Source of the DNA: Sipunculus nudus
Lineage: Eukaryota; Annelida; Sipuncula; Golfingiida; Sipunculidae
Direction: 5' to 3'
DNA length: 64,000 nt
NCBI GenBank assembly: GCA_026874595.1
Contig: CM049307.1
Span: 95,146,330-95,210,329, forward strand
The position numbers and the translations under genes were made by a program. A model generated the notes under the pieces. That model ran no database searches. It had not been told where the DNA came from and worked only from the letters and a program-made list of their open reading frames with translations. Of the stretch, positions 12,858-53,783 are shown in pieces (position 1 is the first letter of the stretch; every line of letters starts with the position of its first letter).

Positions 12858-15800
12858 CTGCCAAGAAAATGAAATATATCATAACATGTTATATAATGAA
12901 AAACAACAGTAAAAACATTGCCATGTTACAAAAGGAGGTTATGCTATTCACCTGTGTTTGTAAACAATATTTTTTGTAAGCCGTCAATCTTCAAACAGAT
13001 TGAAATAATTTTTGACGTAATCAATACAGAAAACAGGCACGAAACTTTCACCTTGGGCAATGATTCAGGCAATTTTATAGGCCTTTAATGTAATACATGT
13101 GGCACATCTGGCACAAATGACTATCTAACTAGAGAAGGATAGATTGACCTGCCTTTAAGACAGATACTATGATGGATTCTTTCCATTTCATATAACTGAA
13201 TCATGGACATTTCAGCAATGTTCATGCTTTACAGGGTTCTTCATATCAATGCTCTTTGGGACCATTCATAATTTTTATGACAAATATTGATTGTTGTATA
13301 AATTTGTTGAAATATAAATTAATTGCTTAATAGCATAACATTTTATGATACACAATAGCCATTATGAAAATACCAGAATGTCCTCAAATAAAAAACAAGT
13401 GACCCATGGGTCATGACGCTCAGCTGACTGGGAAGAGATTCACAAAAGGAAATTTTATCATCAGAATGGTAGATACCCATTCAACTGAAGCATCAAACAG
13501 ATTAACCAACAGGCCAAGATTAAGTCTGTATTTATATATCTGAAAAATAGAGAAAAAATGTGTAAACTTTAAAAACTAGAATATGGGTAGCCGACAAGTG
13601 ACTACGTGTATCTGCCAAAATCAGAGTGAAGTGAGGCATGGAATGAGTGGCAAGGGGAAACAGAGTGAGGTATGTTGCATATTAGCATGGATGTCTGCAG
13701 CCTAAATGTGTATGTAGGTTGTGCAACCTACCACAAATCCAGAAAGCTGTCCAAGTTGTATACATATGCAAAATTTTAGGCAGAAAAGTCAAACCACTAC
13801 ATGGATATGAGTGATTTTAGCCCACGGCAGACAAACAGACAGACGCTGTGCAAATATGGTTGCAGTTTTGTGTATGATAAAGACCTATGTGAGATCTAAA
13901 CACAAGCAGAATTTTGGCCCAATCGGTCAAATGGTTTCTGAGATATTAGCTTGGATGTGTGCAGCGTTAACTAGAATGTAGGTGGCACGTACCACCTGTC
14001 ATAAAATCAAGAAAGATATCCAGGATGTATAAACCTGCAAAATTTTAGGCAGTTATGTCAAACCACTACAGAGAAATGAGTGATTTTAGGCCACGGCAGA
14101 CCAACAGACAGACGCTGTGCAAAAATGTGCAAAAATGGTTCCAGGTGGCCCCTCCAGTTTTGTGTATGATAAAGACCTATGTGAGATCTATACACATGCA
14201 AAATTTTGGCCCAATCGTTCAAACGGTTCCCGAGATATGAGCTTGGATGTCTGCAGCATAAACTAGAATAAAGGTGGCGCCACCTGTCATAAAATCAAGA
14301 AAGCTATCCAGGATGTATAAAACTGCAAAATTTTAGGCAGATATGTCAAACCACTGCCAAGATGTGAGTGACTTTATTGCACGGCAGACAAACAGACAGA
14401 CGCTGTGCAAAAATGGTTGCAGGTGGTGCCACCAGTTTTGTATATGATAAAGAGCTATGTTAGATCTATACAGATGCAAAATTTTGGCCCGATCGGTCAA
14501 ACGATTCCCGAGATATGAGCTTGGATGTCATCAGCGTGAACGTGAATGTAGGTGGTGCCACCTGTCATAAAATCAAGAAAGCTATCCAGGATGTATAAAA
14601 CTGCAAAATTTTAGGCAGATATGTCAAACCACTGCCGAGATATTAGTGACATTATTGCACGGCAGACAAACAGACAGACGCTGTGCAAAAATGGTTGCAG
14701 GTGGCGCCACCAGTTTAGCGTATGATAAAGAGCTATGTTAGATCTATATACATGCAAAATTTTGGCCCGATCGGTCAAACGGTTCCCGAAATATGAGCTT
14801 GGATGTCATCAGCATGAATGAGAATGTAGGTGGCGCCACCTGTCATAAAATCAAGAAAGCTATCCAGGATGTATACGCATGCCGAATTTCAGGTGAATTA
14901 GTCAATTCACTGCAGAGATATGAGTGATTTTAACCAAAGGCAGATGAACAGATGGACACTGTGCAAACATGGTTACAGGTGGCGCCACCATTTTTTGTGT
15001 ATGTTATAGAGTTATCCAAGGGCTACATTAGTATAAATTTTATTTCCTGATCAGTCAAACGGTTCCCGAGATATGAGCTTGGAAAGCTGATAAAATCAAG
15101 TCCCAGAGGAGCTCTCTGGAAACGAAAGCGGCAACGGCGGAGGAACCCAGTCAAAAACATAGTATCCACAAAACTTCATTTTGGCGGTTACAAAAATACA
15201 GGTGGCTCCACCAGTCTGCAGAAACTAATAAAAACACTTACAAACATCAATATCCATGCAAAGAATCATGGTGATCTCCCCATTAGTTGTTCAGATACTT
15301 CAGCTTTTGTATCAAATTGTCCATTATTCTGAGGGATACTTCGGAGTCCTATAGCTTGAAGGATATGGGTAACAGAGACCTAATTTTAAATTTCCACAGG
15401 CACTTTTCATGGGCCTTCTTGCATGACAAGAATGAAGATTCTAGGTCCAGTTGTTGCGATTTGTACCCTGTTGACAGATACCCACATCTTTAAAGGTATC
15501 AAAAAAAGAGAAAAAAAATCGTAAAAATTTGAAAAAAATAGAGGTGGCGCACCCAGTCTGCAGAAACTGATGGAACAGGTCATGATCAATATGTATGCCG
15601 AAAATCATGACCATCAGTGTTGTAGTTATTGAGATACTGCAGTTTTTGTATTAAATTTTCCATTATTCTGGGGGGTAATTTGGAGCCATACAGCTTAAAG
15701 AATATGGGTAACAGAGACCTAATTTCAGGTTTCCATGGAGACTTCATGGGTCTCCCTGTGTGTCAAGAATGAAGATTCTAGGTCCAGTTTTAATGATTTG

Positions 15801-23300: not shown

Positions 23301-24637
23301 ATGTGCAAAAATTTCATCTAATATTCTTTTATCACATATTATCCATTAGACAAAATGTCTTGCTTCTTGATAACACTGGCACATGCCAAAAAGAGCAAAT
23401 GTGGAAATAATTCATGGTTCAACCTGTTGATGATGGAAAAACCTTTTTAGGGACTTCCTTAATCCTATACAGTAATCCTACACATTAATCAACTCATAAA
23501 TCCTAATTTCTTTACTATAAATGCTGATTAAAGTTTTTTCATAAATACTGCGATTACTGGAATTTTAAATACAATGTGATTTCACTAAACTGATGCAAAC
23601 ATTTCATGTGTATAATTTATTTAAATATATTCATGCTGAATATATAATCATAATATATTTCAATTTGATGCAATGAAATTATTTATAGGAAAAGGTAATA
23701 AAAATCCAGTGCATTCACCATAGTAAGCTTCTTATGTAGGGTGTACTGACAAAAGCCCACCCAGACTAAAGCCCATTGGACAAGAGCCCACTGCACATAA
23801 GCCCACCCCTAAAAGTGCAGACTTGGACAAGAGCTCATCCTTTACTAAAATATAAATTAAAATTATTTTACCATGTTTTTCTGAAGTCTTTTAAATACTA
23901 ACTACAGTTATATAACATTTTTTTTAATACTTATATGGCAAGTATTATAAAATGTTTATGATTTTTTAATCAGGGCAAGAGATACATTAGAAGGTTACAG
24001 GATACCATTAACACACAAAGGAGTCATTTTAGTATATGAGGCAGATTGCCATTAATAGTATAATACCATTATTGGTACGTTTTAAAACATCTTCGGCCAT
24101 GGTAGTGTCTATCCCCATGACCGTCATGCGGATTAGCTTTCTTATCAGCCTGACAGCTGTGTTCTCAAATAAATCGTACACTAAATATATTTTAATTTTT
24201 CATAATATAATCACTTCAAGTATAAGAGAAATTGATGAAAAGTATTAAGTAATTTTGGGAAAATTGATACAAAACAAAACTCATGAACAGAAATAAATGT
24301 TTTAGGCACCGGGCGTTCCTATTCGATCTTAATACTGGTGTCCAATCTCAGGTATATACTTCAACAGATCACGTAGTTCTTGTATAACACTTTGTATAAC
24401 ATTTTGGGAAAATTGATACAAAACAAAACTCATGAACAGAAATAAATGTTTTAGGCACCGGGCGTTCCTATTCGATCTTAATACTGGTGTCCAATCTCAG
24501 GTATATACTTCAACAGATCACGTAGTTCTTGTATAACACTTACCTTTTAATAAATTTTGTGTCTCCTTGCTGTAAGTGGCTTTTGGTGAGCTCCAAAAGC
24601 CGCCCTGTGCCACGGGGTGTCTTGTTTTGTCCGCCAT
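12732..24637 (-). CDS. EVG1: UPF0193/EVG1 (C22orf23-like) protein, seven exons, whole gene span
   Basis: Seven exons on the minus strand join to 705 nt, encoding 234 aa plus stop, in one frame without stops. Exons run 24637-24544, 21145-21083, 20244-20148, 19636-19551, 18531-18388, 17798-17704 and 12857-12732. Diagnostic stretches are MMKESKLNNFQQRQ (exon 2), ATGAYEREKY (exon 4), DKERLANI (exon 5), MEALGQEKQFRPII (exon 6) and an EISQ-KIREME join across exons 6 and 7. All match, in order, the UPF0193/EVG1 family, human C22orf23, which is about 217 aa. The protein is hydrophilic and charged, with no signal peptide or membrane segment. No biochemical function is known to me; a cilia- or sperm-related role is sometimes suspected and is not shown here. 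The exon 5/6 boundary is the least certain, because other splice choices there introduce a stop. Confidence 0.88.
12858..13573. other. EVG1-like intron 6, unique part
   Basis: Intronic AT-rich sequence. At 13397-13430 it holds a reversed copy of the 'GAGCGTCATGACCCATGGGTC' type dispersed motif seen at 7.7 and 58.5 kb. Confidence 0.5.
13574..15190 (+). mobile_element. Tandem-core element A, copy 2 (intron 6 of EVG1-like gene)
   Basis: The element starts ACTAGAATATGGGTAGCCGA followed by CTACGTGTATCTGCCAAAAT. It contains about five tandem units of roughly 280 bp, with GGTGGCGCCACC or variants near 14275, 14553, 14700, 14830 and 14979. It ends with ACATAGTATCCACAAAACTT and TTTTGGCGG. Its orientation is opposite to copy 1. 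The end hairpin is decayed, and element B begins immediately afterwards. Each unit also contains CAGACAAACAGACAGACGCT. Confidence 0.72.
15191..17556 (+). mobile_element. Tandem-core element B (seven ~335-bp units)
   Basis: Seven tandem units each open with a GGTGGCGCCACC-like palindrome followed by AGTCTGCAG, near 15200, 15542, 15880, 16220, 16541, 16875 and 17215, so the period is about 320-350 bp. Each unit also carries ATAGCTCAAAGGATATGGGT and GTCAAGAATGAAGATTCTAG. Palindromes are perfect only in the last three units. The array ends at ACGGACGGACAGACGGATGA and the hairpin AGCTCAGATGACT..AGTCAGCTGAGCT (17520-17553), the reverse of the end of element D at 5102. No coding capacity. Confidence 0.72.
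17704..17798 (-). CDS. EVG1: EVG1-like exon 6
   Basis: It encodes EIDERRRFLNEMEALGQEKQ followed by FRPIIETEISQ and ends at donor CACAG|GTCAGTC. The acceptor is taken as TACAAG|CAGAAATTG to keep frame with exon 5; AG three bases further on is the alternative. This is the second most conserved block of the family. Confidence 0.8.
18388..18531 (-). CDS. EVG1: EVG1-like exon 5
   Basis: A 144-nt exon with acceptor TTATTTCAG. It encodes YFYEKDKERLANIMAYGED, a proline/lysine-rich stretch, then KMDRFDE. The donor is taken as GAGT|GTAAATG because the alternative GA|GTGTAA gives a stop with exon 6. Confidence 0.75.
19551..19636 (-). CDS. EVG1: EVG1-like exon 4
   Basis: An 86-nt exon with acceptor TTTCATAG and donor ACAA|GTAAGG. 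It encodes VNSPQIRSKEQIEATGAYER and then EKYVPKK. ATGAYEREKY corresponds to the conserved 'ANGAYSREQF' block of vertebrate homologues. Confidence 0.83.
20148..20244 (-). CDS. EVG1: EVG1-like exon 3
   Basis: A 97-nt exon with acceptor TTAATAG and donor CCAAG|GTAGG, encoding DGATLPTQCHPTTS and PPPSKIVDPR. It aligns in order with GDALPLQCSPTSS of the human protein. A (TA)n tract lies immediately upstream of the acceptor. Confidence 0.82.
20251..20321. repeat. (TA)n microsatellite
   Basis: An almost pure TA/TG-interrupted dinucleotide tract about 70 bp long, directly upstream (in minus-strand sense) of EVG1-like exon 3. In-frame readings of tyrosine and isoleucine here are artefacts. Confidence 0.9.
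21083..21145 (-). CDS. EVG1: EVG1-like exon 2
   Basis: A 63-nt exon between acceptor TTTGCAG and donor CAAG|GTAGAG. It encodes the most conserved block of the family, MMKESKLNNFQQRQLNK. Phase is 1 in and 1 out. Confidence 0.88.
22480..22925 (+). repeat. Two ~275-bp tandem units with GGGGTCA(A)AGGTCA motifs
   Basis: Two units begin CTTTCCATCT near 22476 and 22756. They share TTTGGGGTCA/TTTCGGGGTCA, AAGGTCA..GTCACAGGG and a 'GATGATA(A)CTyC' block. It lies in intron 1 of the EVG1-like gene. GGTCA half-sites are frequent, but nothing indicates they are regulatory. Confidence 0.5.
23748..23852 (+). repeat. Short AAGCCCAC microrepeat cluster
   Basis: Five spaced copies of (A/G)AGCCCA(C/T) or AGCTCATC occur within 105 bp, alternating with GACAA/GACTAA spacers. 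It is intronic and unexplained. Confidence 0.45.
24252..24540. repeat. 149-bp direct tandem duplication next to a splice donor
   Basis: The block beginning ATTTTGGGAAAATTGATACA (24252) and containing GGCACCGGGCGTTCCTATTC recurs at 24401 with no visible difference, at an offset of 149 bp. The second copy ends where the EVG1-like exon 1 donor begins. Near-identity means a recent event, or an assembly duplication. Confidence 0.85.
24544..24637 (-). CDS. EVG1: EVG1-like exon 1 (start codon)
   Basis: The ATG at 24637-24635 lies in AAAATGGCGGAC, a YY1-like context. The exon encodes MADKTRHPVAQGGFW and ends NLLK plus one base, at donor AAAAG|GTAAGTG. It joins exon 2 in phase 1 to give NLLKEMMKES. 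The donor directly abuts a 149-bp tandem duplication in the intron. Confidence 0.85.
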
Positions 24638-41339: not shown

Positions 41340-41382
41340 ATGTAGCCATTCTGGTGGCTCAAATCGCTACCTACTCTTATTA

Positions 41383-41916
41383 AACTAGAATACGGGTAGT
41401 CGACAAGCGACTACGTGTATGCGCCTAAATCAGAGTGGAACGAGTGAAGTGAGGCATGGATTGAGTGACAAGGGGAAATAGAGTGAGGTGTGTTGCATAT
41501 TAGCATGGATGTCTGCAGCCGAAATGTGTATGTATGTTGCGTCACCTACCAGAAATCCAGAAAGCTGTCCAAGTTGTATACCTATGCAAAATTTTAGGCA
41601 AAAGGTCAAACCACTGCATGAATATGACTGATTTTATCCCACGGCAGACAAACAGACAGACGCTATGCAAAAATGCTCGCAGGTGGCCCCTCCAGTTTTG
41701 TATATGATAAAGAGCTATGTGAGATCTAAATACATGCAAAATGTTGGCCCAATCGGTCAAACGGTTCCCGAGATACGAGCTTGGATGTCTGCAGCGTAAA
41801 CTAGAATGTAGGTGGCGCCACCTGTCATAAAATCAAGAAAGCTGTCCAGGATGTATAAACCTGCAAAATTTTAGGCAGTTATGTCAAACCACTACAGAGA
41901 TATGAGTGATATTTTT
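41383..41916 (+). mobile_element. Tandem-core element A, copy 3, left part
   Basis: It starts ACTAGAATACGGGTAGTCGA then CTACGTGTATGCGCC, as at 13574, and runs through nearly two core units, with GGTGGCGCCACC at 41812. It stops within a unit at GAGATATGAGTGAT, where the DIRS-order element begins. The right part resumes at 46426 with CCCACGGCAGACAAACAGAC, the sequence expected next in the unit. Confidence 0.75.
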
Positions 41917-41997: not shown

Positions 41998-42088
41998 CCA
42001 TGCCCAGTGCTTCACCATCACCGAACCGTCTTAACCTAGGTAGCCTGGTCATTAATATATGATAAATATGATTAATATATTACCACTT

Positions 42089-42193
42089 AGCACCTAGCAT
42101 GAATAAATTACCGTAAGCGACCTAGCGCTTACGAAGTGCAGCTGACCGCCGCAGGCGGCAGCACATGCAGTTTAATTGTTTGTGTGACTACTA
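42089..42193 (-). repeat. DIRS-order element A2 repeat
   Basis: 105 bp, matching A1 except for one base, and separated from B1 by only five bases (TTTCA). The A2-B1 neighbourhood is what an A-B circle junction would look like. Confidence 0.88.
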
Positions 42194-42198
42194 TTTCA

Positions 42199-42276
42199 GC
42201 AAATCTACGTCACAACAAACAAGTAAACAGTAAATAATTTATTTATAACATAAAAATAAATTATAATGTGCCTTAT
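42199..42276 (-). repeat. DIRS-order element B1 repeat
   Basis: Starts (plus strand) GCAAATCTACGT and ends GTGCCTTAT. It matches B2 apart from a small indel near ATCAAACAAA/CACAACAAAC. Confidence 0.85.
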
Positions 42277-42399
42277 TTCAGAGTATATCCATAACACCAA
42301 AATGAGAAATAAGTAAAAAAGACTAGGCCTGTATGACATGCCCATCTGAAGATAAGAAAACAGGAAATGAAAGCACATGAATGTGCAAATAAAAATTAA

Positions 42400-43656
42400 T
42401 TACTGTGACAGCATGAACAATGTGTACTCCTTTGGTGCTCTACAGGATACATAATGTTCAAAGAAAACAGATCTAGACTTCCATCTACCAATATGCATAG
42501 CTGTGTCAGGATCACATGGGTGCTCAACTGCCCTTGTGGCAGCAGAGGGACGGAAACATTTAGCAGAAAAACCCTGTCCACCAAGGCCTGCAGCAGTAAT
42601 ACTGTCCTGTAAAATCTGACCTACCGTAGCAGCAGAAATAGCAGAGTATGGCTTCCTAAGAGTAAGGAACACTGGGCCCTTTGGCCCTCTCATATGAGAT
42701 GTCCGGACAATATAAGTCTGTAGGCATAGTACAGGGTCGAGCTGTCTATCAGCACAATGGGGCACAGTAACGGAAAACCCTGATCTATCAGTGTCATTCT
42801 TTATTCCATGGTAAGTAACAGTAAGGGATCCATCGTTGTTAAACTTTAAATGGTCCATGGAAAATAACATGCGCTTAGCATCACCTGACCCTGGTTCAAA
42901 CTGAACAGCCTTAGGTGCAAGATCAGAGGGTCTAAGCATGTAAGTCATAGCGAGGAGTGTGATTGCTTTCATACGTAGTTGCTTTATTGACAGCTTGTCA
43001 TTCTCTGGCCAAGCTTTAAGGAGATCAGTAAATGGTTCCACTGGGAGCAATTTTACACGTCTACGAGGGACAGTGGTACCTGACTTGATCAAGGCATCCA
43101 CCAGTCTTCTAATATTATTATCAACAGTAATATCAGGCAACTGATAAGCCAATTGGCAGTGAGACAAAGCAGCAAGCATGGATTGTAAAGTGGACCTAGG
43201 CCTATCAGACGTATCAGATAGTACACATAGAAAATCTGCTAGGTCTGCCGTTTTCGTTGGTGGGAACACAACCTTGTTTTCCTTGCAAAAGTAAAATAAC
43301 TTGTTTAAAAGTCTGTTATAAAGCTGTAATGTGGACTGAGACAGACTGAAAGGGAGCTGCACTGCAGCACGTTGTGACCAACCTATGGCAAGTAGCTGAT
43401 CTTGCCAGAGATTCGCCAAGCATACAGGCGCCACCCTGGGTTCTTTAACGGTTCCGGCTGCAGTCCCAGTGGTATTACCCACCGTTTGTTTCTCGGTAGC
43501 CTGACAGGCCTGTCTATGCATAAGCTGAGGAGCCTGTGGAACCAAGACTGACTGGGCCACCAGGGGGCGATCAGGGTAGCGTCTGCCTTCTGAGAGACGA
43601 CTAGGGCCAGCACTCGCGGAATTAGCCAAAACGGGCAGTTTACAAAGTTGTTGCAT
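42400..43656 (-). CDS. Tyrosine recombinase of the DIRS-order element
   Basis: An intact 418-codon frame. The N-terminal 100 residues overlap the pol ORF. A SAM-like core-binding domain follows (LYNRLLNKLFYFCKENKV), then the catalytic domain. Active-site candidates are Arg in LLAMTYMLRPSDL, the KCFRPSAATR box in place of the usual HxxR, His/Trp in AMHIGRWKS and the nucleophile in VFFEHYVSC. It would join the cDNA circle to the target without a target duplication. No stop or frameshift is seen, so this ORF could still be functional in trans. Confidence 0.87.
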   Translation of the reverse strand: MQQLCKLPVLANSASAGPSRLSEGRRYPDRPLVAQSVLVPQAPQLMHRQACQATEKQTVGNTTGTAAGTVKEPRVAPVCLANLWQDQLLAIGWSQRAAVQLPFSLSQSTLQLYNRLLNKLFYFCKENKVVFPPTKTADLADFLCVLSDTSDRPRSTLQSMLAALSHCQLAYQLPDITVDNNIRRLVDALIKSGTTVPRRRVKLLPVEPFTDLLKAWPENDKLSIKQLRMKAITLLAMTYMLRPSDLAPKAVQFEPGSGDAKRMLFSMDHLKFNNDGSLTVTYHGIKNDTDRSGFSVTVPHCADRQLDPVLCLQTYIVRTSHMRGPKGPVFLTLRKPYSAISAATVGQILQDSITAAGLGGQGFSAKCFRPSAATRAVEHPCDPDTAMHIGRWKSRSVFFEHYVSCRAPKEYTLFMLSQ

Positions 43657-44546
43657 CCCCCCCAGTTGGTTTGGGCCAGGGCATCGACAGCCTCGGTTAG
43701 AGGATCCCAGTACAGGCTGTTGTATCTGGGGAGCTGAGTTGTTATGAGGGATTCAAACCGGTCTAAGTCGTGAGGACCCCACAGTCGGTCTAACATTTGA
43801 AATAAGCGAGGGCTCATCATCCAGTCGTAAGTAGTTAGCTTTCGTGATAATAAGTCGGCATGAGTATTTTCTGGACCAGCCAAATGCTTCGCAGAGAGGT
43901 CTATCTGATTGTTGTATGCGGCAGCCCATATAGCCCTTGCTACATGTGTCAGTTGTAAACATGGGCCGCCTAAGTGGTTGATGTAGGCAACACTGGAGAT
44001 ATTGTCTGTTAGAACCTGTACAACCTTTCCCTTGAGAAGAGGCATAAAAGTTAGTAAGGCTAACAGTATGGCGAACAGCTCCCTGTAGTTTGACGACTGA
44101 TGGGTGGTGAATACATCCCATAAGCCGCTTGCCTCCATGTTGTTGCATACAGCCCCCCAGCCGGAGGCTGATGCGTCTGTTACAAGTTGTACCTGAATGG
44201 ACTTGTTGGTTACTGGGCTCCCATTCCAGGTGGTTAGGGCACACAGCCACCAACGAAGATCCCTGCAAGTGGCGGGATTTAGACATAGTCGGTCTGTCCA
44301 TGAGTTTCTTGTAGCAAGTAACTGATACAAATTGCGAAGAAGTAGTTTGGCAGGTAAAATACACAATGTCATACTAATACATTGGCCTGCTATACGTGCT
44401 AGTGCCCTAGCAGTTAGCCAACCTTGATTTAAGGCTCTATTTATATCCTTCCTAATTCTCCTCACCCTATCTTTGGGAATATAAATTCCAAGTTTTGTTA
44501 TCATTTGTAACGGTACACATTTTATACCCAAGGAAATTAACCACAT
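43383..44546 (-). CDS. RNase H and downstream region of DIRS-order pol
   Basis: A 387-codon open frame with no natural start, continuing pol from the RT frame after a one-base shift. Its RNase H has all four acidic positions visible: VTDASASGWGAV (D), SSNYRELFAILLAL (E), VLTDNISSVAYIN (D), PENTHADLLSR (D). The region after it (about residues 225-330: DRFESL, YNSLYWDP, EAVDALAQTNW, NCPFWLIPRVL, LIAPWWPSQSWF) matches the conserved segment behind RNase H in DIRS elements, which some authors assign to an adenine-methyltransferase-like fold; NCPF would be a degenerate NPPF motif. Its 3' end overlaps the recombinase ORF by 274 nt in another frame. Confidence 0.8.
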   Translation of the reverse strand: MWLISLGIKCVPLQMITKLGIYIPKDRVRRIRKDINRALNQGWLTARALARIAGQCISMTLCILPAKLLLRNLYQLLATRNSWTDRLCLNPATCRDLRWWLCALTTWNGSPVTNKSIQVQLVTDASASGWGAVCNNMEASGLWDVFTTHQSSNYRELFAILLALLTFMPLLKGKVVQVLTDNISSVAYINHLGGPCLQLTHVARAIWAAAYNNQIDLSAKHLAGPENTHADLLSRKLTTYDWMMSPRLFQMLDRLWGPHDLDRFESLITTQLPRYNSLYWDPLTEAVDALAQTNWGGCNNFVNCPFWLIPRVLALVVSQKADATLIAPWWPSQSWFHRLLSLCIDRPVRLPRNKRWVIPLGLQPEPLKNPGWRLYAWRISGKISYLP

Positions 44547-45135
44547 GACTCGGAACCAGATTGGATTTTTCCCAGTTTATAAACCAGCCAAGATTCTGTA
44601 ATACTGTTAGCAGTAAATCTTTGTGTGCATCAATATTATGACTATCTACCATTAATATGAAGTCATCAACATAAGCAACAACCCTCAAGTTGTTTTCTCT
44701 CAAATATTTAACTACAGGCCTAATACACTTCTGGAAATAAAATGGAGAAACACATAAACCAAAGGGTAAAACCTGCCATACATAGTATTTTCCCCTCCAG
44801 GAAAACCCTAAATACTGTTGGTGCTCCCTGAGAACAGGGATATGATAAAAACCATTGCGTATATCAAGTGTGATAAGTTTGTCATGAGGCTTGACAAGTG
44901 ACTGTACAGTTCTAATATCCTCTTGTTTGAATGAAGGTACATCACAGCACCTGTTTACCTCTCGAAGATCTATAATTAGTCTCAACTGGTTATTTCTCTT
45001 CGGCACCACTGAAATGGGAGACACACAAGCAGGTGTAGAGTCAACCTGTCTCACAGCCCCTGATTGCAATAAGCATTCAAGTTCATTGTCAATAAACACA
45101 CAGTGTTTAGAATCAACAACCCTATTTTGGAATTA
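44467..45135 (-). pseudogene. Reverse transcriptase domain of the DIRS-order element (disrupted pol)
   Basis: The frame from just after a TAA (45135-45133) to 44467 encodes the RT fingers and palm: ISVVPKRNNQLRLIIDLREV, VLPFGLCVSPFYFQKC, and the catalytic VAYVDDFILM (YVDD). The same frame continues upstream of the TAA with recognisable pol residues (SWLTHGVAIPFRV, about 45200-45150), so the TAA is an internal stop, not a natural boundary. A GTG sits at 45099, so an ATG start is not evident. At the end, near 44510-44530, similarity passes to the +1/-1 frame that carries RNase H, so a one-base indel or a programmed slip must be invoked. The aspartates needed for catalysis are present. Confidence 0.82.
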
Positions 45136-45402
45136 AAAATGATGAGGTAATACCCTGAACGGTATTGCAACACCATGTGTTAACCAGCTAATGACTTGTG
45201 AAGGCGCCCCAATGTTTCATAAGCTTTAGCATTTAATGAGTCTGCTGAAAATGGTATACACATAGTCCATGGGCATCAAAATTATCAATGAGTCTGCTGG
45301 AAACTGTATACACATAGTCCATGGGCGTCAAAAGTAGGCAGCAGTGTTGAGAATCAACAGAAGAAGCTAAAAATCTAAATGTTAACAGCACAGTGTCACC
45401 AA

Positions 45403-46332
45403 TCAGTTCTGATCACGGGCGTCCTGCTGGGGTGGCCTTGAATATGGAACACCAGAATCTTGGAAGTTCCGGAATGCAGAGGTATTGGCATTGTACTGTC
45501 TTGACTGATAACGACCACGATACCCAGGCCTGTAGCCAAAACCTCTGGGACGGCTGTATGACCTCTCTCTGTCATGTGCTTGGTTCTGCGGGATAATGCT
45601 GTTTGCTATGCGAAGATTTTCAATTGCCCTCGGTGGTAAGGCAGACGTATTTTTCTGCAGGGTACGAAAAATTCTGGAGGCTTGCGGATATTGTGAGCGA
45701 ACAATTAAGTCTGCATACTCATCTTGCAAGGACTGCACATGCGCCAGGTTTATCAGGTATATGTGGTTAAGTTCTTGTTCGAGGGCCTTATCCTGTGGTA
45801 GTGTTGCCAAGAGTTTTAATGTTTTTTCAGCATAACGAGCCGACTTACTAATAACATTGAGCAGTGGTTGGTCATTGCGTGGCACTCCTTGTCTACAGTC
45901 ATGTACCTTATGGTCAGCAGGAAGCACAACATGAGCTAGAGAGTCACGTAATGATTTGAACTGTCCTTGCAAATCTTCCTCAGGGTGATTCACTGTACCG
46001 TGACCAGGACTGAGGGGGCCCCTCAAGCAGTGACAGGGGCAAGAATTATCAGATGCGGCCTGGTGTGGCAAAGCATGTGCTACAAAAGTCGCACTGTTTA
46101 TCTGAGTCGAATCAGTACTCACGGGCGGGTTTGGTGCCGGCGCAGTCTCGCCTTCATTTTTATGAACAGCGGCTTGCCCCTCTAGACTTTCAATCCTGGC
46201 ATTTATTTTCGACTGTTCGACTTTAAAACACTGGAAGTCACTGCATAATTGACTAACTAACACTTCAATTTTACAAAGTGTTTCATTATCGCCCATCGCG
46301 GCTGACCCAAGCGGTAAGGTAGCACCTAGCAT
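45403..46332 (-). CDS. gag-like ORF of the DIRS-order element
   Basis: An intact 309-codon frame. The first ATG (46332) lies inside the A1 repeat; an internal Met at MGDNETLCKIEVLVSQL is an alternative start. The N-terminal part (about residues 15-60) has heptad-like hydrophobic spacing suggestive of a coiled coil, and the middle contains a proline-rich and then a helical segment. The C-terminus (about 265-309) is rich in arginine, glycine and tyrosine (PGYRGRYQSRQYNANTS), suited to nucleic-acid binding. No CCHC zinc knuckle is present. The role as Gag is inferred from position, ahead of pol in the element. Confidence 0.7.
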   Translation of the reverse strand: MLGATLPLGSAAMGDNETLCKIEVLVSQLCSDFQCFKVEQSKINARIESLEGQAAVHKNEGETAPAPNPPVSTDSTQINSATFVAHALPHQAASDNSCPCHCLRGPLSPGHGTVNHPEEDLQGQFKSLRDSLAHVVLPADHKVHDCRQGVPRNDQPLLNVISKSARYAEKTLKLLATLPQDKALEQELNHIYLINLAHVQSLQDEYADLIVRSQYPQASRIFRTLQKNTSALPPRAIENLRIANSIIPQNQAHDRERSYSRPRGFGYRPGYRGRYQSRQYNANTSAFRNFQDSGVPYSRPPQQDARDQN

Positions 46333-46425
46333 GAATAAATTACCGTAAGCGACCTAGCGCTTACGAAGTGCAGCTGACCGCCGCAGGCGGTAGCACATGC
46401 AGTTTAATTGTTTGTGTGACTACTA
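46321..46425 (-). repeat. DIRS-order element A1 repeat
   Basis: 105 bp, matching A2 (42089-42193) except for one C/T difference. It contains two hairpins: GTAAGCG..CGCTTAC and CCGCC-GCA-GGCGG. The gag-like ATG at 46332 lies within it. Confidence 0.88.
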
Positions 46426-47110
46426 ATCCCACGGCAGACAAACAGACGGACGCTGTGCAAAAATGGTTGCCACCAGTTTTTCGTATGATAAAGAGTTATG
46501 TGAGATCTATACACATGCAAAATTTTGGCCAAATCGTTCAAACGGTTCCCGAGATATGAGCTTGGATGTATGCAGCGTGAACGTGAATGTAGGTGGCGCC
46601 ACCTGTCATAAAATCAAGAAGGCTATCAAGGATGTATACGCATGCCGAAACTCAGGTGAATTAATCAAACCACTGCAGAGATATGAGTTTCCTGGATGTA
46701 TAAAACTGCAAAATTTTAGGCAGATATGTCAAACCACTGCAGAGATATGAGTGATTTTAACCTAAGGCAGATGAACAGATGGACACTGTGAAAACATGGT
46801 TGCAGTAGCGCCACCATTTTTTGTGTATGTTATAAAGCTATTCAAGGGCTACATTTGTACAGATTTTTTTTCCTGATCGGTCAAACGGTTCCCGAGATAT
46901 GTGTGTTTATGTATGGAAACAGACGCACAAATGGACGCTTGGCAGAGAGGAAAGGTCAGAGGTCAAAACAAAATCGGGGTGCAGCAAATCACGTGTGACC
47001 TGAACATAATCCCGGGTTTCGTAAAATTCCGCCCAGCGGTTACGGAGGAGTTCTCCGGAATCCTACGCGGCGGCGGCGTGCAACTGAAAACATAGTATCC
47101 GCAAAACTCT
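46426..47110 (+). mobile_element. Tandem-core element A, copy 3, right part
   Basis: It resumes with CCCACGGCAGACAAACAGAC and continues through core units with GGTGGCGCCACC at 46592 and a decayed palindrome near 46805. It ends AACATAGTATCCGCAAAACT at about 47092-47110. The terminal hairpin is truncated compared with copy 1. Confidence 0.72.
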
Positions 47111-47803
47111 CTCTATACAACAGTTTCCCAGCAAAACCATCCCAGGCTAAGTACCTCGCATACGACTGTTTAAGGCCTTGTTATGGCTCGATCTGCGTGT
47201 TGGTAAACACAGTCCACGTGTGTCTGTTTACCATAACAAGGCTGCGTGACCGGATGTTCGATTGTGAGCAGCAACACGCGATGTTTCAGCCAGCGGGAAC
47301 ATGTATTTTATTTTTTGGGGGGCATCAGGGCATCTCCTGATTGACACGTGTTGTGACTGGGCGATACACGCGCTGTGTTTATGTTGACGCCTGTGATGGC
47401 GCCCGATCCACTGTTTTTAACACACGTTTACAAGAGTAAGCAAACGGTTTCAGGGCAATGTTTTGACAGGTACAAATTTATTGTAAAAGGAAGAAGCGGT
47501 TTTTCTTGTTTATTCAACATGCTTTATAGGTGATTAGGCCCCTTAAGTACATGGTTAATTTATGGAATCTTACGGATATCATCAGAAACCCCTTTTATAT
47601 TTCTAGGAGGAAACTTTAAAGGACTGAGTGGACTGATCAGGGAACTTTGAAAGTTTATTTGTGGAACCCTTGTATATTGTCCTTTATGGAACCTTTGTTT
47701 GAAAACTAGTTGTACAAACAATGTAAAATAAAAATTTTAAAAATATTATTTTTATCAGACAAAAAAAACCCAGAAGAACTTTCGTTCTTACGCTTCATTC
47801 TCA
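47111..47803. other. Intergenic stretch with a short hairpin
   Basis: No gene. At 47175-47242 a 12-bp perfect inverted repeat (GCCTTGTTATGG / CCATAACAAGGC) encloses an inner one (GGTAAACACAG / CTGTTTACC), giving a roughly 68-bp hairpin that may be a tiny MITE. Confidence 0.5.
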
Positions 47804-48418
47804 GACGTATTAAGACGGACCATGAGCATTATTAATTAAATATTCTGTTTATTATATCAGACTTATCAATTACCTAGTTTTCGTCTGTTCCTATTGTATG
47901 TAGTAAATGATAAAGCAAATACTAAACGCAGGCCACAAATTCCACATAAACTGTTGAAAACACTAAAGTTCACCATAGATTTTAGACTCCTCAAGAAACT
48001 GAAATTTGCAATATACTTACTAGCGCTGTTTCTGACGCAACTCGGGTTTCCAATTATGTACGTGTTTGCTCCACACAAAGGCAGTGACATGGGTTTACTA
48101 AAAATGAAGCCAAATGGTTCGTTTCTTGTATCAGCATTGGGAGTTTAATTGGAAGAATTACAACAGGATTAATCGGGAATGTATCGTTTCTACAAGGTCG
48201 GCGTCTCCGTCTACATCAGTTTAGTGTTGCCTTTGCATGCGTGGGTCTCATCTTGGTTCCTGTCTGTACCAGTTTGTGGTCTATGTACGCAATTCTTTCC
48301 ATAATAGGCTTCGCAACAGGTGGGTACAACTAATTTTGTGTATCCTGCATCATACGCTCCCCAATCAACGGTCATACACTGCAGTTGTCCCAGATTTCCC
48401 TCATTGTAATTGCTGCTT
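47804..48418 (+). pseudogene. MCT exon-3-like pseudogene, left arm of inverted duplication
   Basis: About 60 codons, NTKRRPQIPHKLLKTLKFTI through QLGFPIMYVFAPHKGSDMG, correspond to the loop and TM7 of the MCT-like transporter at 30 kb. A one-base loss right after SDMG breaks the frame. Downstream the matching frame continues to a preserved donor-like GCAACAG|GTGGGTAC (48317), so this came from genomic DNA with its intron, not a retrocopy. It lacks the first half of the exon and all other exons. Divergence from the intact gene shows it derives from a different paralogue. Confidence 0.83.
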
Positions 48419-49392
48419 TGAATAACAAAATGCTCTAGGAGAGTGTAATATCGCAATATGCATCGAGCGCCAAATTTTAAACATGCGCTAACCGCTCTGG
48501 TTGAATTGATTTTTTGGACCTGTTCCGGAAACGGTGTAATCAGGTAACCGGCGGTGTCATTACGATCAACGGTGTCGCATATTTAGGAGATGGATACACA
48601 ATGTAGGGATGGTAATACTTTGAAATTTTCATTTTTCCAATCGATAGGCATTAAAACAGGTTAGCCTTTCCGCTAGTGATGCATCCTACACTCATATCAA
48701 CCTTTCAGTCACACTTCGCTCATTGTAAACCTGATTCTGCCATCTTACATGTCATCTTCATGCAACCTTGCATGTAAATAGTTATGATTGTATTCAGTAG
48801 TAAACACTGTTATATCAGAAACTCAATTGTGCAGTAAACAACCTAGGTAAATATAGGAGATGAGAGCCTAAATGCCGGAGAGTATAAGAAATTATAGACC
48901 ATTTTAATAGGACAATATAGGAGATATAGGGAGTCGGTGGAACACCACCTGTAAAATGTTTCGTTTTTGTTGCTACTTATTAGCTACTAATGTGGAAACC
49001 ATCTAGGAATTCACCTTTCAAACAGATTGGTAAAAAATAAAAAAAAAAGCCTTTCCGTGCACGTGCTCGTCTGTCTGAGACAGGCGGAAAGGCCTTATTA
49101 CGACCGCTGACAATGCGATACCACGCCTGTCATTGATCTGATTGCAACTGGTATTGCAACTGACCATGATCGCTCGGTTCTGACACTTACGTCGCTGTTT
49201 CCAGTACGGCTGTTTTCTAAAACTGATCTTTGGTCGGATTGATAGTCACATGTGTTTTTTTTTGCACTTTATATTTATTTTGGACCTTAAAAGGGGAATT
49301 TGACACCCAGGGCGCCCCTGTGATGATAAAATATTTAAAAAAAGTTTTGGACCAACAATATTATCATTCGGCTAAATATTTTGCCGTTTCTG
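48419..49392. other. Spacer between the inverted MCT pseudogene arms
   Basis: No coding similarity. It contains a short hairpin at 49049-49093 (GCCTTTCCG ... CGGAAAGGC) with an inner CTGTCT/AGACAG. Otherwise it is unremarkable AT-rich DNA. Confidence 0.5.
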
Positions 49393-50007
49393 AAGCAGCA
49401 ATTACAATGAGGGAAATCTGGGACAACTGCAGTGTATGACCGTTGATTGGGGAGCGTATGATGCAGGATACACAAAATTAGTTGTACCCACCTGTTGCGA
49501 AGCCTATTATGGCAAGAACTGCGTACATAGACCACAAACTGGTACAGACAGGAACCAAGATGAGACCCACGAATGCCAAGGCAACACTAAACTGATGTAG
49601 ACGGAGACGCCGACCTTGTAGAAACGATACATTCCCGATTAATCCTGTTGTAATTCTTCCAATTAAACTCCCAATGCTGATACAAGAAACGAACCATTTG
49701 GCTTCATTTTTAGTAAACCCATGTCACTGCCTTTGTGTGGAGCAAACACGTACATAATTGGAAACCCGAGTTGCGTCAGAAACAGCGCTAGTAAGTATAT
49801 TGCAAATTTCAGTTTCTTGAGGAGTCTTAAATCAATTGTGAACTTTAGTGTTTTCAACAGTTTATGTGGAATTTGTGGCCTGCGTTTAGTATTTGCTTTT
49901 TCATTTAATACAAACAATAGGAACAGACGAAAACTAGGTAATTGATAAGTCTGATATAATAAACAGAATATTTAATTAATAATGCTCATGGTCCGTCTTA
50001 ATACGTC
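49393..50007 (-). pseudogene. MCT exon-3-like pseudogene, right arm of inverted duplication
   Basis: A reverse-complement copy of 47804-48418, also 615 bp, with only a handful of substitutions by eye (for example GTATGTAGTAAATGAT versus GTTTGTATTAAATGAA). It carries the same one-base lesion after SDMG, so the lesion is older than the duplication. A 974-bp spacer separates the arms. Confidence 0.85.
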
Positions 50008-50464
50008 TTGTAGTATTTGTTTGACAGGGCAAACTCTGTAACTAAACCGTAAACATCACATATTAAATGACCGTTAAACATAGGAATGGATATGGTCAAC
50101 ATAAGATGCATCAATACGAAATACATATGTTTTCTTCTCCTTGCTTTATTAACTGTATATAATATTTACAAGTAATGTGTTGGTAATTATTGTACTTTCA
50201 AGTTTACGTGTAAAAGCCTACCTCAAATTGTAATGCTTTTTTACGACAATATGCGATTGACATAATGAAATAACGTGTGATTTATTAATTTATGAACAAT
50301 TCTTTTGACAAGAAAATGACTTAACTAGAAGAAATTGTGTCATGAAATGCGCAGTTAAATATACAATTATTATGTTATGGAATATAGTTCGGATAGACTC
50401 ACGTTGTGTTTGTTATTACTTCTTGCTCATCGGATATTACCACAAATTAATTTAACTATAAGGC
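50008..50464. other. Stretch downstream of the METTL24-like gene
   Basis: AT-rich. It probably includes the 3' UTR of the minus-strand METTL24-like gene. No other feature was seen. Confidence 0.4.
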
Positions 50465-50785
50465 CTAATGTTCATTTGTCAGAAACCGGTTGTTAATGTA
50501 GAATAATTCCATAAAGGCATATCGTGTCTTGTCTGTGATCTTAGAAACATAATGAGTGTGCTTGTTAATGTGCGTTTGGAAGCGTCTAAAGCCAGCATCA
50601 TCAACTGATTTAAGGAGTTTGTACACATGGAAAAGTCCATCTGGTTTCTCAAAGCGATATGTCGCGTTGATGTGAAGCTCAAAAAAGAACTGTTTTACTT
50701 TTTTGAGGGCACCTGATTCTATCATATCTGGGATGGCCTCCCATTCCGAAAATTCGACGTCCATCTTAAGGATGTCCAAGACGCG
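50465..50785 (-). CDS. METTL24-like last exon
   Basis: The acceptor is CTACTTTCAG. The exon encodes RVLDILKMDVEFSEWEAIPD, then KKVKQFFFELHINATYRF, and a C-terminal region ending YINNRFLTNEH with TAG at 50467-50465. Confidence 0.87.
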   Translation of the reverse strand, partial: RVLDILKMDVEFSEWEAIPDMIESGALKKVKQFFFELHINATYRFEKPDGLFHVYKLLKSVDDAGFRRFQTHINKHTHYVSKITDKTRYAFMELFYINNRFLTNEH

Positions 50786-53783
50786 CTGAAAGTAGACGGA
50801 AACGTCAGACTCTACAAGAAAGCTTTATATCGACAAGACATGAAATGTCAATGCTTAGTCTGGAATCGACAAGACATGAAATGTCATTCCTTATTTAACA
50901 ATCGACAAGACATGAAATATCATTCCTTATTCTAGAATCGAAAAGACATGAAATGTCATTCCTTATTTTAGAATCGACAAGACATGAAATATCATTTCTT
51001 ATTCTAGAAAAAAACAAGACATAAAATGTCATTACTTATTCTAGAATCGACGAGACATGAAATGTCATTCCTTTATTTTGGAATCGACAAGACATGAAAT
51101 ATCATTACTTATTCTAGAATCGACAAAACATAAAATGTCATTACTTATTCTAGAATCGACGAGACATGAAATGTCATTCCTTATTCTAGAATCGACAAGA
51201 TATGAAATGTCATTACTTATTCTAGAATCGACAAGACATGAAATGTCATTCCTTATTCTAGAATCGACAAGACACGAAATGTCATACTTATTCTAGAATC
51301 GTAAAGACATGAAATGTCATTACTTGTGCTAGAAAAATCGACAAAATATAAAAGTCATTACTTTTTATAGAAATCGACAAGACATGAAATGTTATTACTT
51401 GTTCTAGAAAATGACGTGACATGAATTGTCATTAGTTATTCTAGAAACTGACAAGACATGAAATGTCATTATTTATTCTGGAAATCGACAGGATATGAAA
51501 TAATATTCTTATTTTTGAAATCGACAATACATGAAATGTCATTTCTTATTCTAAAAATCGACAAGACACGAAATTACTTATTCTAGAAATTGACAGGACT
51601 TAAAATGTACTTGCTTATTTTAGAAATGAATTTTTCTAGAAATTGACAGGACATGAAATTTCTTCAGGTGCCCTAGAAATCGACATGACCACATTTAATT
51701 AACAAAAATTACCACATATCGACGATGTCCAAGAACTACTGGATATATGCACGGAATGCATTGTATTTATTCTAGAAATCAACGCGACATTCCTTTTTCC
51801 GTTCCAAGAAATTAAAAGCTTAAGATATAAGATCATTTTCTGATCAAAGTAATCGACAAGACATTCTTTTCCAAAACCGTTGACACGGGAGAAAATAAAT
51901 TCTAATTATTACAAGGTTTTGCCAGAAATCAACAAGACAAGCATATGAGTAAAACTAAATGCTTGCAGTATGGAAAAAACAGAGAAAACAGAATGTTACT
52001 ACAGTGATAAAATGTAAATTTTTACACTTACATCATTGTGGTTAAGCTCATTTATGATGGTCTTCAGTGTCTTGCCTTTCCAGTATTTTTTGATCGCACC
52101 ATCTGTGCCGGATATCCCAATGTTATGGAACCATACATTCTCAGAATGCTTGTGATCTTCTTTGCCAATACTCGAATGCAACAGCATGGAATTATGATCA
52201 TTTAATACCACAAGAAATATTTTAAAAAATCATCCACAGTGTATCCAGGTCATTTTGAACAAACGGACAGAATTTTAAAACGTACAAAGTCACAGGGATA
52301 CGTAAAGTGCAGTCTATAGTATAAATGCTCCAGCTAAAAAAAATTAACCATATAAAAATCTTAGTTTGTTTTCTAATCAATTGCATTTCGTATAAAGAAA
52401 TGAAACATCTTATTGAACCGGCTTCTGTGGCTCAGGGGTAGAGTTTAGGCTTCAAAGCCGGGAGATCGTGATTTCGAATCTCAGCCGAGGCGGTCCCCAC
52501 CCAGGGTGAGCGCTCTGCAGACTTAATGGGAAGGCCGTGCCCAACAGGTCCGTGCACTTCGTAGTAGAATCCTCATTAACGCTGCGTAGCGGATGTCGTT
52601 GGGGGGGGGGGGGTTGCTTGCAGACACCTTCGGGGATTAGCATATTTCTAATTACCACAATTGTTTATCAGCGCCACCTGGTGTCTGAACTTAATATAAT
52701 AACTATATATATTTTTTTGTCTTTATACGCAAAAACAGTGTTAAAATGAGCAGTTCCCACTGAAAAGCTTATATCTTGTTAAATGTACAGTATTTGGTCC
52801 TAAATAGAAACTGGTAAAACACGTTCAGTAGTTCAACGAATTTATCGACATCTTTAGAAAGGAAACAAACTTTAGATAAATTCATAATACCTGGGATCAA
52901 AGGAGTGTACCTCACACTGGTACGCTTCTGATACAGCCTCGTCGAAGCTCCAATCATTAGAAATCCTGTGGAGAATATTAAGGAATATTAATCGTGCATG
53001 GCCACTGATAAGAAGTGTAATATATAAAGGGAGAAAATGTGTTGCCATCCTCCGGTCAACTTCAAATGTGCATAAACGATTGGCTGCGCTCTATTCGTAA
53101 ACCAAAGACCTTTCTTAAATCTATTGAGTCAGCATATTACTGCATATTTTATATTTAATCTACCTTATATTTAAAGGTATATTAATATTTATAACATCCA
53201 ATAGCTATTCGCCACTTCATGGTTGTAATGATTTATTGAAAATGTCCATTAGAATATACGTGTAATGAATATGCACATTAAGTAATTTTTGTTATCATTT
53301 TGATTTGTCATTGTCTCTAGAATGCACTGCATGGCCATCCATCCATTCTGTTGCAATAATATAGTGGTAAACAGTAAAATACATGCCAGGGGATTTGCTA
53401 AAATGCTATGTTAAAACCGATTTTTTTCTCGCACATGGCAGGTGTTGTTTAAATGTAAACCATCGTACTGAAAACGTACTTATAGGCCATGAAGCGTTGT
53501 CAAAAATGACCAAAATATTTGCATCTTCATTGAGAGTAACATCACGGTGCTTGATACAAGATGTAAAGCACTCTGACTCTGGGAATGTCAGACGGTCGAA
53601 ATGGCCTTTTGAACGGCCATGGACATTTTACATGTATATGTGATATTTTACCCGAACGAGTAGACGAGACACTCCCCACGGGCAGGCTTTATTTCTGAGT
53701 CTGCACACGTGAACCAGCCGCCATCTTCCACGCGACCCATCCGGGCTATTTTCTGACAGTGAACCCCTGGGAGCATCAGGTAC
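50465..53783 (-). CDS. METTL24-like methyltransferase, 3' four exons (partial gene)
   Basis: Exons 53783-53652, 52965-52891, 52170-52032 and 50785-50465 join in one frame to about 222 residues ending at TAG. In order: GGWFTCADSEIKP, CLVYSFGISNDWSFDEAV, CEVHSFDPSIGKEDHKHSEN, DILKMDVEFSEWEAIPDM, and VKQFFFELHINATY. This is the Methyltransf_21/FkbM-like domain as in METTL24: YSFG and HSFDPS are the cofactor-site region, and KMDVEFSEW is the second conserved block. It probably transfers methyl from SAM, with unknown substrate. METTL24-type proteins usually have an N-terminal signal anchor; upstream exons with that part are not found, and a 5.9-kb element lies next upstream. The first intron phase here is 2. 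Confidence 0.82.
50829..51690. repeat. 36-bp minisatellite in an intron of the METTL24-like gene
   Basis: About 24 tandem units of the form AATCGACAAGACATGAAATG followed by TCATT(A/C)CTTATTCTAG, with a 36-bp period. It is well preserved from 50829 to 51320 and increasingly diverged to about 51690, with echoes to 51920. Each good unit contains two palindromes, GACAT-GAA-ATGTC and TTCTAGAA. Because 36 is a multiple of three, a repetitive plus-strand frame (51057-51296) appears; it is not called as a gene. Confidence 0.92.
52032..52170 (-). CDS. METTL24-like exon (third visible)
   Basis: The acceptor is taken as GCATTCGAG, a weak polypyrimidine context but the only one giving the family reading SIGKEDHKHSENVWFHNIGI. 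It ends INELNHND at GAT|GTAAGTG, phase 0. Confidence 0.78.
52415..52625 (+). mobile_element. tRNA-derived SINE, copy 2
   Basis: A pol III A box TGGCTCAGGGGTAGAG (52428-52443) and a B-box-like GATTTCGAATCTC (about 52468-52482) give a tRNA-like head. The body contains CCCAGGGTGAGCGCTCTGCA and GACTTAATGGGAAGG, as in the relic at 8.3 kb. It lies antisense in a METTL24-like intron. A G run (about 52600-52613) and a GATTAGCATATTTC tail follow; the 3' limit is uncertain. Confidence 0.72.
52891..52965 (-). CDS. METTL24-like exon (second visible)
   Basis: A 75-nt exon between TCCACAG and CCCAG|GTATTATG. It encodes ISNDWSFDEAVSEAYQCEVH then SFDP. Its codon split AG|T with the next exon gives the conserved SFDPS. 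Confidence 0.85.
53652..53783 (-). CDS. METTL24-like exon (first visible)
   Basis: The acceptor is TTTAATTGAAG. The exon encodes YLMLPGVHCQKIARMGRVED, GGWFTCADSE and CLVYSF, and ends in phase 2 at TTCGG|GTAAAA. The start codon is not in this exon. Confidence 0.8.

What the first reader, a model, noticed from the sequence alone, without database searches (positions are those of the whole stretch)
47804..50007. Inverted duplication of a broken MCT exon could form a long hairpin RNA
Two 615-bp arms, nearly identical and head to head with a 974-bp spacer, carry an MCT-like exon segment plus its following intron start. Both share the same one-base lesion, so the copy was already dead when it duplicated. 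Transcription across the region would give a long double-stranded stem with homology to MCT paralogues. Hairpin RNAs from inverted gene fragments are known sources of endo-siRNAs in other animals; a role here is inference. The intact MCT-like gene at 30 kb is clearly diverged from the arms, so any target would more likely be another paralogue.
Basis: partly seen in the sequence, partly recalled or inferred. Interest (0 to 1): 0.72.

Follow-up and report, generated by a model that had tools for sequence, protein, structure and literature searches.

The report
Inverted scar in a dead gene
A piece of a long-dead animal transporter gene was copied backwards next to itself; it is a real hairpin-shaped scar, but it closely matches no working gene that was examined, so it is most likely ordinary genome decay rather than a regulator.

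Summary
The inverted repeat is real: 616-bp arms (47803-48418, 49393-50008), 10 mismatches, no gaps, 974-bp spacer. The window's own genome (1.43 Gb, unnamed animal) shows its origin. The locus is a decayed member of a local MCT cluster; its three closest relatives (85-88%) lie 0.17-0.28 Mb away and all three are broken. The left arm is native: homology to relatives runs through its left flank and nearly all of the spacer. The right arm is an inverted copy of it, lying where relatives carry exons 4 and 5. The arm had already lost exon 2 and half of exon 3 and taken the frameshift. No target-site duplication was found, and at most 1-2 bp are shared at the junctions: a rearrangement, probably a template switch, fits best. 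If transcribed, the arms would pair (606 of 616), but 0 of 713 arm 21-mers occur in the two apparently intact MCT genes examined; the three broken relatives do share some. The genome shows one Dicer-dimer match and two Ago-like loci, as in molluscs, where no endo-siRNA pathway was found (PMC12479628). An siRNA role is unsupported, not excluded.

The parts
47111..47802 (+). Left flank, collinear with intron 1 of two MCT relatives; shows that the left arm is in its native place
   Evidence: 80% to L012 over 47111-47902, 82% to L010 over 47391-47902; not found in L009
47803..48418 (+). Left (native) arm: intron-1 remnant, second half of exon 3, start of intron 3
47902..47906 (+). Older deletion junction shared by both arms: intron 1 joined to mid exon 3; relatives have about 1.7 kb (L010) and 1.9 kb (L012) here, with exon 2 and the 5' half of exon 3
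47924..48321 (+). MCT exon-3 remnant, broken by a one-base frameshift near 48091-48094, ending at a GT splice-donor-like site
   Evidence: tblastn 53% and 61% in two frames that meet at the lesion
48419..49392 (+). Spacer: native intron-3 sequence of the dead gene, collinear with relatives up to the right arm
   Evidence: 75% to L009 over 48439-49393; 75% and 77% to L012 over 48439-49103 and 49107-49381
49393..50008 (-). Right arm: inverted copy of the left arm, lying where relatives carry exons 4 and 5 (1.2 kb in L009) or exon 4 (1.7 kb in L010)
50009..50336 (+). Right flank, collinear with sequence downstream of the MCT exons in two relatives
   Evidence: 50013-50071 and 50071-50261 to L009, 50074-50336 to L010

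Best explanation
This is a decaying copy of an MCT (SLC16-type) transporter gene in a local cluster. It first lost exon 2 and half of exon 3 and took a frameshift. Then a local rearrangement copied the remaining intron 1-exon 3-intron 3 piece in reverse into the place of exons 4 and 5. The most likely route is a replication or repair template switch to the opposite strand, with at most 1-2 bp shared at the junctions. Both arms have since mutated independently. No function is needed to explain it. Shown: native left arm, inverted right arm, order of lesions, no target-site duplication found, lack of perfect matches to the apparently intact genes examined. Inferred: the template switch, and that loss of exons 4-5 and gain of the inverted copy were one event.
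For: Left flank collinear with L010 and L012, spacer with L009, L010 and L012 (in parts), right flank with L009 and L010; exon 4 (and exon 5 in L009) of the relatives lies in the stretch replaced. Both arms share the intron 1-exon 3 deletion and the frameshift. Differences polarised by relatives: 6 of 10 derived in the right arm, 3 of 10 in the left (one of these weak), 1 of 10 undecided. Of the 8 differences within exon-3 sequence, 6 change an amino acid in the old frames (read), as expected without coding constraint. No exact repeat of 4-12 bases within 7 bases of the two outer ends. Relatives carry no such inverted repeat: of 4 loci, 3 show none over 60 bp and L009 only a 94-bp self-palindrome. 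Local inverted duplications with deletion and little microhomology are a known class (PMC10766186, passages).
Against: The 10 differences are clustered (P 2e-5 to 2e-4 for distances of 6-10 bp, about 0.05 at 30 bp; post hoc) and 9 of 10 are transversions (P 0.027 on the local spectrum); plain drift does not predict this. Ancestral bases at the junctions rest on relatives only about 75-88% identical. Lack of transcription was not shown.
Confidence: 0.82

Rival explanations
1. Hairpin-RNA (hpRNA) locus: transcribed through both arms, cut by Dicer into siRNAs that silence MCT relatives.
For: 606 of 616 arm-arm pairs, -1355 kcal/mol. Perfect 21-mers shared with the relatives: L012 99, L010 23, L009 11 of 713; L011 has 3 left-arm 21-mers of 596 at two mismatches. 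A Drosophila precedent, Dsim-hp58, carries an inverted exon-2 fragment and was born one gene from its progenitor (PMC10317233, passages).
Against: All three relatives that share 21-mers are broken. 0 of 713 21-mers and 0 of 695 15-mers occur in the window's MCT gene, L011, L006 or L007. One Dicer-dimer match, two Ago-like loci; molluscs with such a set showed no endo-siRNA pathway (PMC12479628), if this is a mollusc; the same paper allows rare or conditional processing. 9 of 10 arm differences are transversions, which cannot be kept as G-U pairs, so there is no sign of selection for pairing.
Confidence: 0.05
2. Assembly artefact: a chimeric or fold-back join, or two haplotypes put head to head.
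For: 1.6% arm divergence is within what heterozygosity could give in many marine invertebrates (recalled, not tested). Reads were not available.
Against: A fold-back read would not be expected to have a native spacer or to put the copy between collinear flanks in place of exons 4-5. Differences are derived in both arms, though two haplotypes would show that too.
Confidence: 0.06
3. A transposon with 616-bp terminal inverted repeats that captured an MCT exon.
For: Long inverted ends around a spacer.
Against: No target-site duplication found; among the 40 matches listed, no other place has the 5' and 3' parts of the arm joined; spacer and left arm are native sequence.
Confidence: 0.02
4. The arms exchange sequence by gene conversion, which keeps them similar.
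For: Differences lie in four islands, two of them mixing changes from both arms (one on a weak call), between runs of 95, 62, 250, 52 and 120 identical bases.
Against: Only one genome; 1.6% divergence may simply be young age. Not exclusive of the best explanation.
Confidence: 0.15

Closest known systems
Local inverted duplication with deletion (template-switch, MMBIR or ODIRA-type rearrangements)
   Same: Inverted copy close to its source, sequence lost at the insertion site, little or no microhomology, no TSD found
   Different: Only 616 bp, inside a pseudogene; the event itself was not observed; duplicated segments in the human cases of PMC10766186 run from a few kb upward (passages)
Drosophila hpRNA loci such as Dsim-hp58 (PMC10317233, passages)
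   Same: Inverted fragment of an exon near its family
   Different: No perfect siRNA-size match to the apparently intact genes examined; no transcript or siRNA evidence; Ago/Dicer set looks unlike the insect one
Long inverted repeats of homologous genes in Caenorhabditis (PMC1803023, abstract)
   Same: Nearly identical inverted arms with gene homology
   Different: Those structures are often conserved across species; here both arms are broken and no comparison species was available
MCT expansion in bivalves (Sinonovacula, PMC11939762, abstract)
   Same: Expanded MCT family with tandem copies
   Different: That paper counts genes; broken members with an inverted copy are not mentioned in the abstract, the only part read

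Membership tests
hpRNA / endo-siRNA locus | Long inverted repeat able to pair | tested here: met
   606 of 616 predicted pairs on +, 605 on -
hpRNA / endo-siRNA locus | Extended perfect complementarity to an intact target gene | tested here: not met
   0 of 713 21-mers in the window MCT gene and L011 (apparently intact) or in L006, L007; shared 21-mers with broken L009, L010, L012; the rest of the genome was covered only by the capped search
hpRNA / endo-siRNA locus | Transcript and Dicer-dependent 21-23-nt siRNAs | not testable with these tools
   no RNA data
hpRNA / endo-siRNA locus | siRNA-class Dicer and Argonaute in the genome | tested here: inconclusive
   1 Dicer-dimer match; 28 Piwi-domain exon matches, grouped by me into 6 loci, 2 of them Ago-like (L014 exon nearest Ago2 and Ago3; L016 and L018 nearest Piwi); exon-wise search, no tree; RdRP search not answered
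TIR transposon / foldback element | Target-site duplication | tested here: not met
   no exact repeat of 4-12 bases within 7 bases of the outer ends
TIR transposon / foldback element | Other genomic copies with the same ends | tested here: not met
   40 matches: the two arms, 3 broken relatives plus 2 upstream pieces of relatives, 16 more distant MCT matches, 17 matches to a short dispersed repeat; 40 of 48 candidates scored
Local inverted duplication by rearrangement | One arm native, the other inserted between collinear flanks | tested here: met
Local inverted duplication by rearrangement | Little or no microhomology at the junctions | tested here: met
   1-2 bp at most, read by eye against L009 and L010; ancestral bases inferred
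MCT (SLC16) pseudogene | Homology to MCT exons plus disabling lesions | tested here: met

The most novel reading that the evidence does not exclude
The inverted dead exon is an expressed hairpin in an animal without a dedicated siRNA pathway: its dsRNA is handled by the miRNA-class Dicer and Ago, by ADAR or by Piwi, and its small RNAs act on MCT family transcripts, while the arms exchange sequence by gene conversion.
Probability: 0.03. Interest if true: 0.7.

Novelty: new member of a known kind. Interest (0 to 1): 0.2.

Why it matters
It is a clean worked case of how an exon-derived hairpin arises by rearrangement inside a decaying gene cluster, with the donor, the insertion site and the order of lesions readable from relatives. 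It is also a warning: a perfect-looking exon hairpin can come from decay alone, with no intact matching target among the genes examined.

Tried and rejected
Considered and rejected: TIR transposon (no TSD found, no other joined copies listed, native spacer); retrocopy (the arm holds intron pieces); two exons of a live gene (exons 1, 2, 4 and 5 of the window's MCT gene gave no hit better than E 0.3 outside that gene; the nearest to the arms is an exon-5 hit at 51069-51140 with E 4, inside a satellite). Rfam: 0 matches at gathering score in the window; tRNA: 0. The bacterial promoter scan is not meaningful for an animal and was not used. A small stem inside the spacer (about 49049-49094, z -2.6 for 161 nt) was not followed. 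One multinucleotide mutation per island as the sole cause of the clustered differences does not suffice, since islands 1 and 3 mix changes derived in different arms (one call in island 1 is weak). Genome searches for the spacer and for RdRP did not complete. My working view before the relatives were aligned was that all 10 arm differences lie inside the exon; the later comparison shows that one (arm position 96) is in the intron-1 remnant and one (101) at the deletion junction; the report uses the corrected count.

Full report
Observation. The inverted repeat is as described. Arms 47803-48418 (+) and 49393-50008 (-) are 616 bp, 606 of 616 identical, ungapped, with 974 bp between. Identity stops abruptly at both ends of both arms. 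It is not chance: 968 inverted 20-mers in 45001-53000, none in 195 of 200 Markov resamples.

What the arm holds. The nearest apparently intact gene in the window is an MCT-like transporter with five recognisable coding exons between 27806 and 31569 (exon 3 is nearest MCT2 and MCT1 among solved structures). The arm's 47924-48321 matches the second half of its exon 3 (residues 122-254 of the 254-residue exon translation) in two frames that meet at the lesion, 53% and 61% identical; at DNA level 242 (left arm) and 240 (right arm) of 402 bases. A splice-donor-like GT and about 95 bp of intron follow. Exons 1, 2, 4 and 5 gave no hit better than E 0.3 in the window outside that gene.

Own genome. 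The window is contig C2:95146330-95210329 of a 1.43-Gb genome in 153 contigs. A search with the left arm (615 bases) scored 40 of 48 candidates: the two arms; three relatives at 85-88% (C2:95365910, 95388485 and 95476461, all on the other strand); two matches at 83% to query positions 1-99 only, about 1.7 and 1.9 kb upstream of two of these relatives; 16 MCT-like matches at 66-74% (15 at C2:76-80 Mb, one at C2:95405475); and 17 matches confined to query positions 535-615, a short dispersed repeat on many contigs. No listed match outside the two arms exceeds 88%. The tool notes that counts are lower bounds and that very common words are skipped.

Anatomy from the relatives. I fetched four 10-kb pieces: L009, L010 and L012 hold the close relatives, L011 the 66% one. 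L009, L010 and L012 carry in-frame stops in exon 3 or exon 4 matches (3 of 3 broken); L011 matches parts of all five exons, exon 3 in full, without a stop, so I call it apparently intact. Against these, the window reads: 47111-47902 is intron 1 (L010 and L012; not found in L009); 47906 onward is exon 3 from its middle, then intron 3 through the spacer to 49391-49393; 50013-50336 is sequence downstream of the MCT exons (L009 and L010). So the left arm and the spacer are native. The right arm lies between the point where the relatives' intron 3 breaks off and the point where their downstream sequence resumes; in L009 that stretch is 1.2 kb and holds exons 4 and 5, in L010 1.7 kb with exon 4. L012's fetched piece ends before the downstream part. 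Between 47902 and 47906 relatives have about 1.7 kb (L010) and 1.9 kb (L012), with exon 2 and the first half of exon 3. This deletion and the frameshift are in both arms, so both precede the inverted copying.

Mechanism. No exact repeat of 4-12 bases was found within 7 bases of the outer ends, so no target-site duplication. At the inner junction one base, at the outer about two, could be shared between donor and recipient, read by eye against L009 and L010. A template switch to the opposite strand, with return further downstream, would give an inverted copy in place of a lost stretch; end joining of a copied fragment would look alike. Inverted duplications with deletion are a known class (PMC10766186, passages). 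That loss of exons 4-5 and gain of the copy were one event is inference.

After the event. Of 10 arm differences, relatives assign 6 to the right arm (96, 172, 175, 181, 437, 490), 3 to the left (101 weakly, 109, 432), and leave 1 undecided (496). Both arms therefore mutate on their own. Of the 8 differences within exon-3 sequence (109-496), 6 change an amino acid in the old frames (read from the translations), as expected without coding constraint. Two features remain unexplained. The differences sit in four islands: P under uniform placement is 2e-5 to 2e-4 for distance limits of 6-10 bp and about 0.05 at 30 bp, all post hoc; differences from the relatives are not clustered, though at their density that comparison has little power. 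And 9 of 10 are transversions against a local 662 of 1181, summed over 11 partly overlapping alignments (P 0.027). Islands 1 and 3 mix changes from both arms (island 1 partly on a weak call). Islands left between conversion tracts are possible; this was not tested.

The hairpin-RNA reading. A transcript across the region is predicted to pair its arms at 606 of 616 positions on +, 605 on -. But 0 of 713 arm 21-mers, and 0 of 695 15-mers, occur in the window's MCT gene, in L011, or in two loci of the distant cluster (L006, L007). Allowing mismatches in left-arm 21-mers (596), L011 has 3 with two and 9 with three, the window gene 8 with three, L006 and L007 6 each with three. The broken relatives share 99 (L012), 23 (L010) and 11 (L009) perfect 21-mers. 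So perfect-match siRNAs would hit only dead relatives, as far as examined. One search found 28 Piwi-domain exon matches, which I group into six loci: two Ago-like on C5 (an L014 exon is nearest Ago2 and Ago3; L013 reads nearly the same by eye) and four others (L016 and L018 nearest Piwi; L019 read by eye only; the locus at C7:67.78 Mb not examined). One search found one Dicer-dimer match. A survey of RNAi genes in 35 genomes, with small RNAs of seven mollusc species in its comparison, reports miRNA-class Ago and a single Dicer in molluscs and no endo-siRNA pathway, while allowing rare or conditional processing (PMC12479628: abstract, passages and one results section read). That the window is a mollusc is my inference from the gene content and the known MCT expansion in bivalves (PMC11939762, abstract); no call names the organism.

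Verdict. A real, well-resolved inverted scar in a decaying gene copy; ordinary in kind, with a small puzzle in the pattern of arm differences. In print: six paper searches (listings only, beyond the papers named) showed no report that I recognised as this locus.

Noticed in passing
arm positions 96-109, 172-181, 432-437, 490-496 (window 47898-48298): The 10 arm differences fall in four tight islands and 9 of 10 are transversions; two islands mix changes derived in different arms. Unexplained.
   Followed up: partly
window 42088-46425: DIRS-like retroelement on the - strand (clear reverse transcriptase match; RNase H and tyrosine-recombinase matches weak, below the curated cut-offs) with 106-bp direct repeats, 99% identical, at 42088-42193 and 46320-46425. 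The DIRS label is recalled.
   Followed up: no
window 50445-52492: A weak Methyltransf_22-like fragment (below cut-off) and a 36-37-bp satellite that lie next to the MCT unit in relatives too: collinear in L010 at 78% and partly in L009.
   Followed up: partly
window 48338-48418 and 49393-49473: The inner end of each arm is a short dispersed repeat found on many contigs (17 of 40 matches).
   Followed up: no
G000 C2:76.6-80.4 Mb: A second, more distant cluster of at least 15 MCT-like exon matches on the same contig.
   Followed up: no
window 1238-2346, 13679-15083, 41382-41913 and 46413-46901: A family of about 280-bp tandem units in both orientations; one piece abuts the DIRS-like element.
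   Followed up: no
window 24252-24541: A 149-bp unit in tandem, 1.9 copies, 100% matching: very young or an assembly repeat.
   Followed up: no
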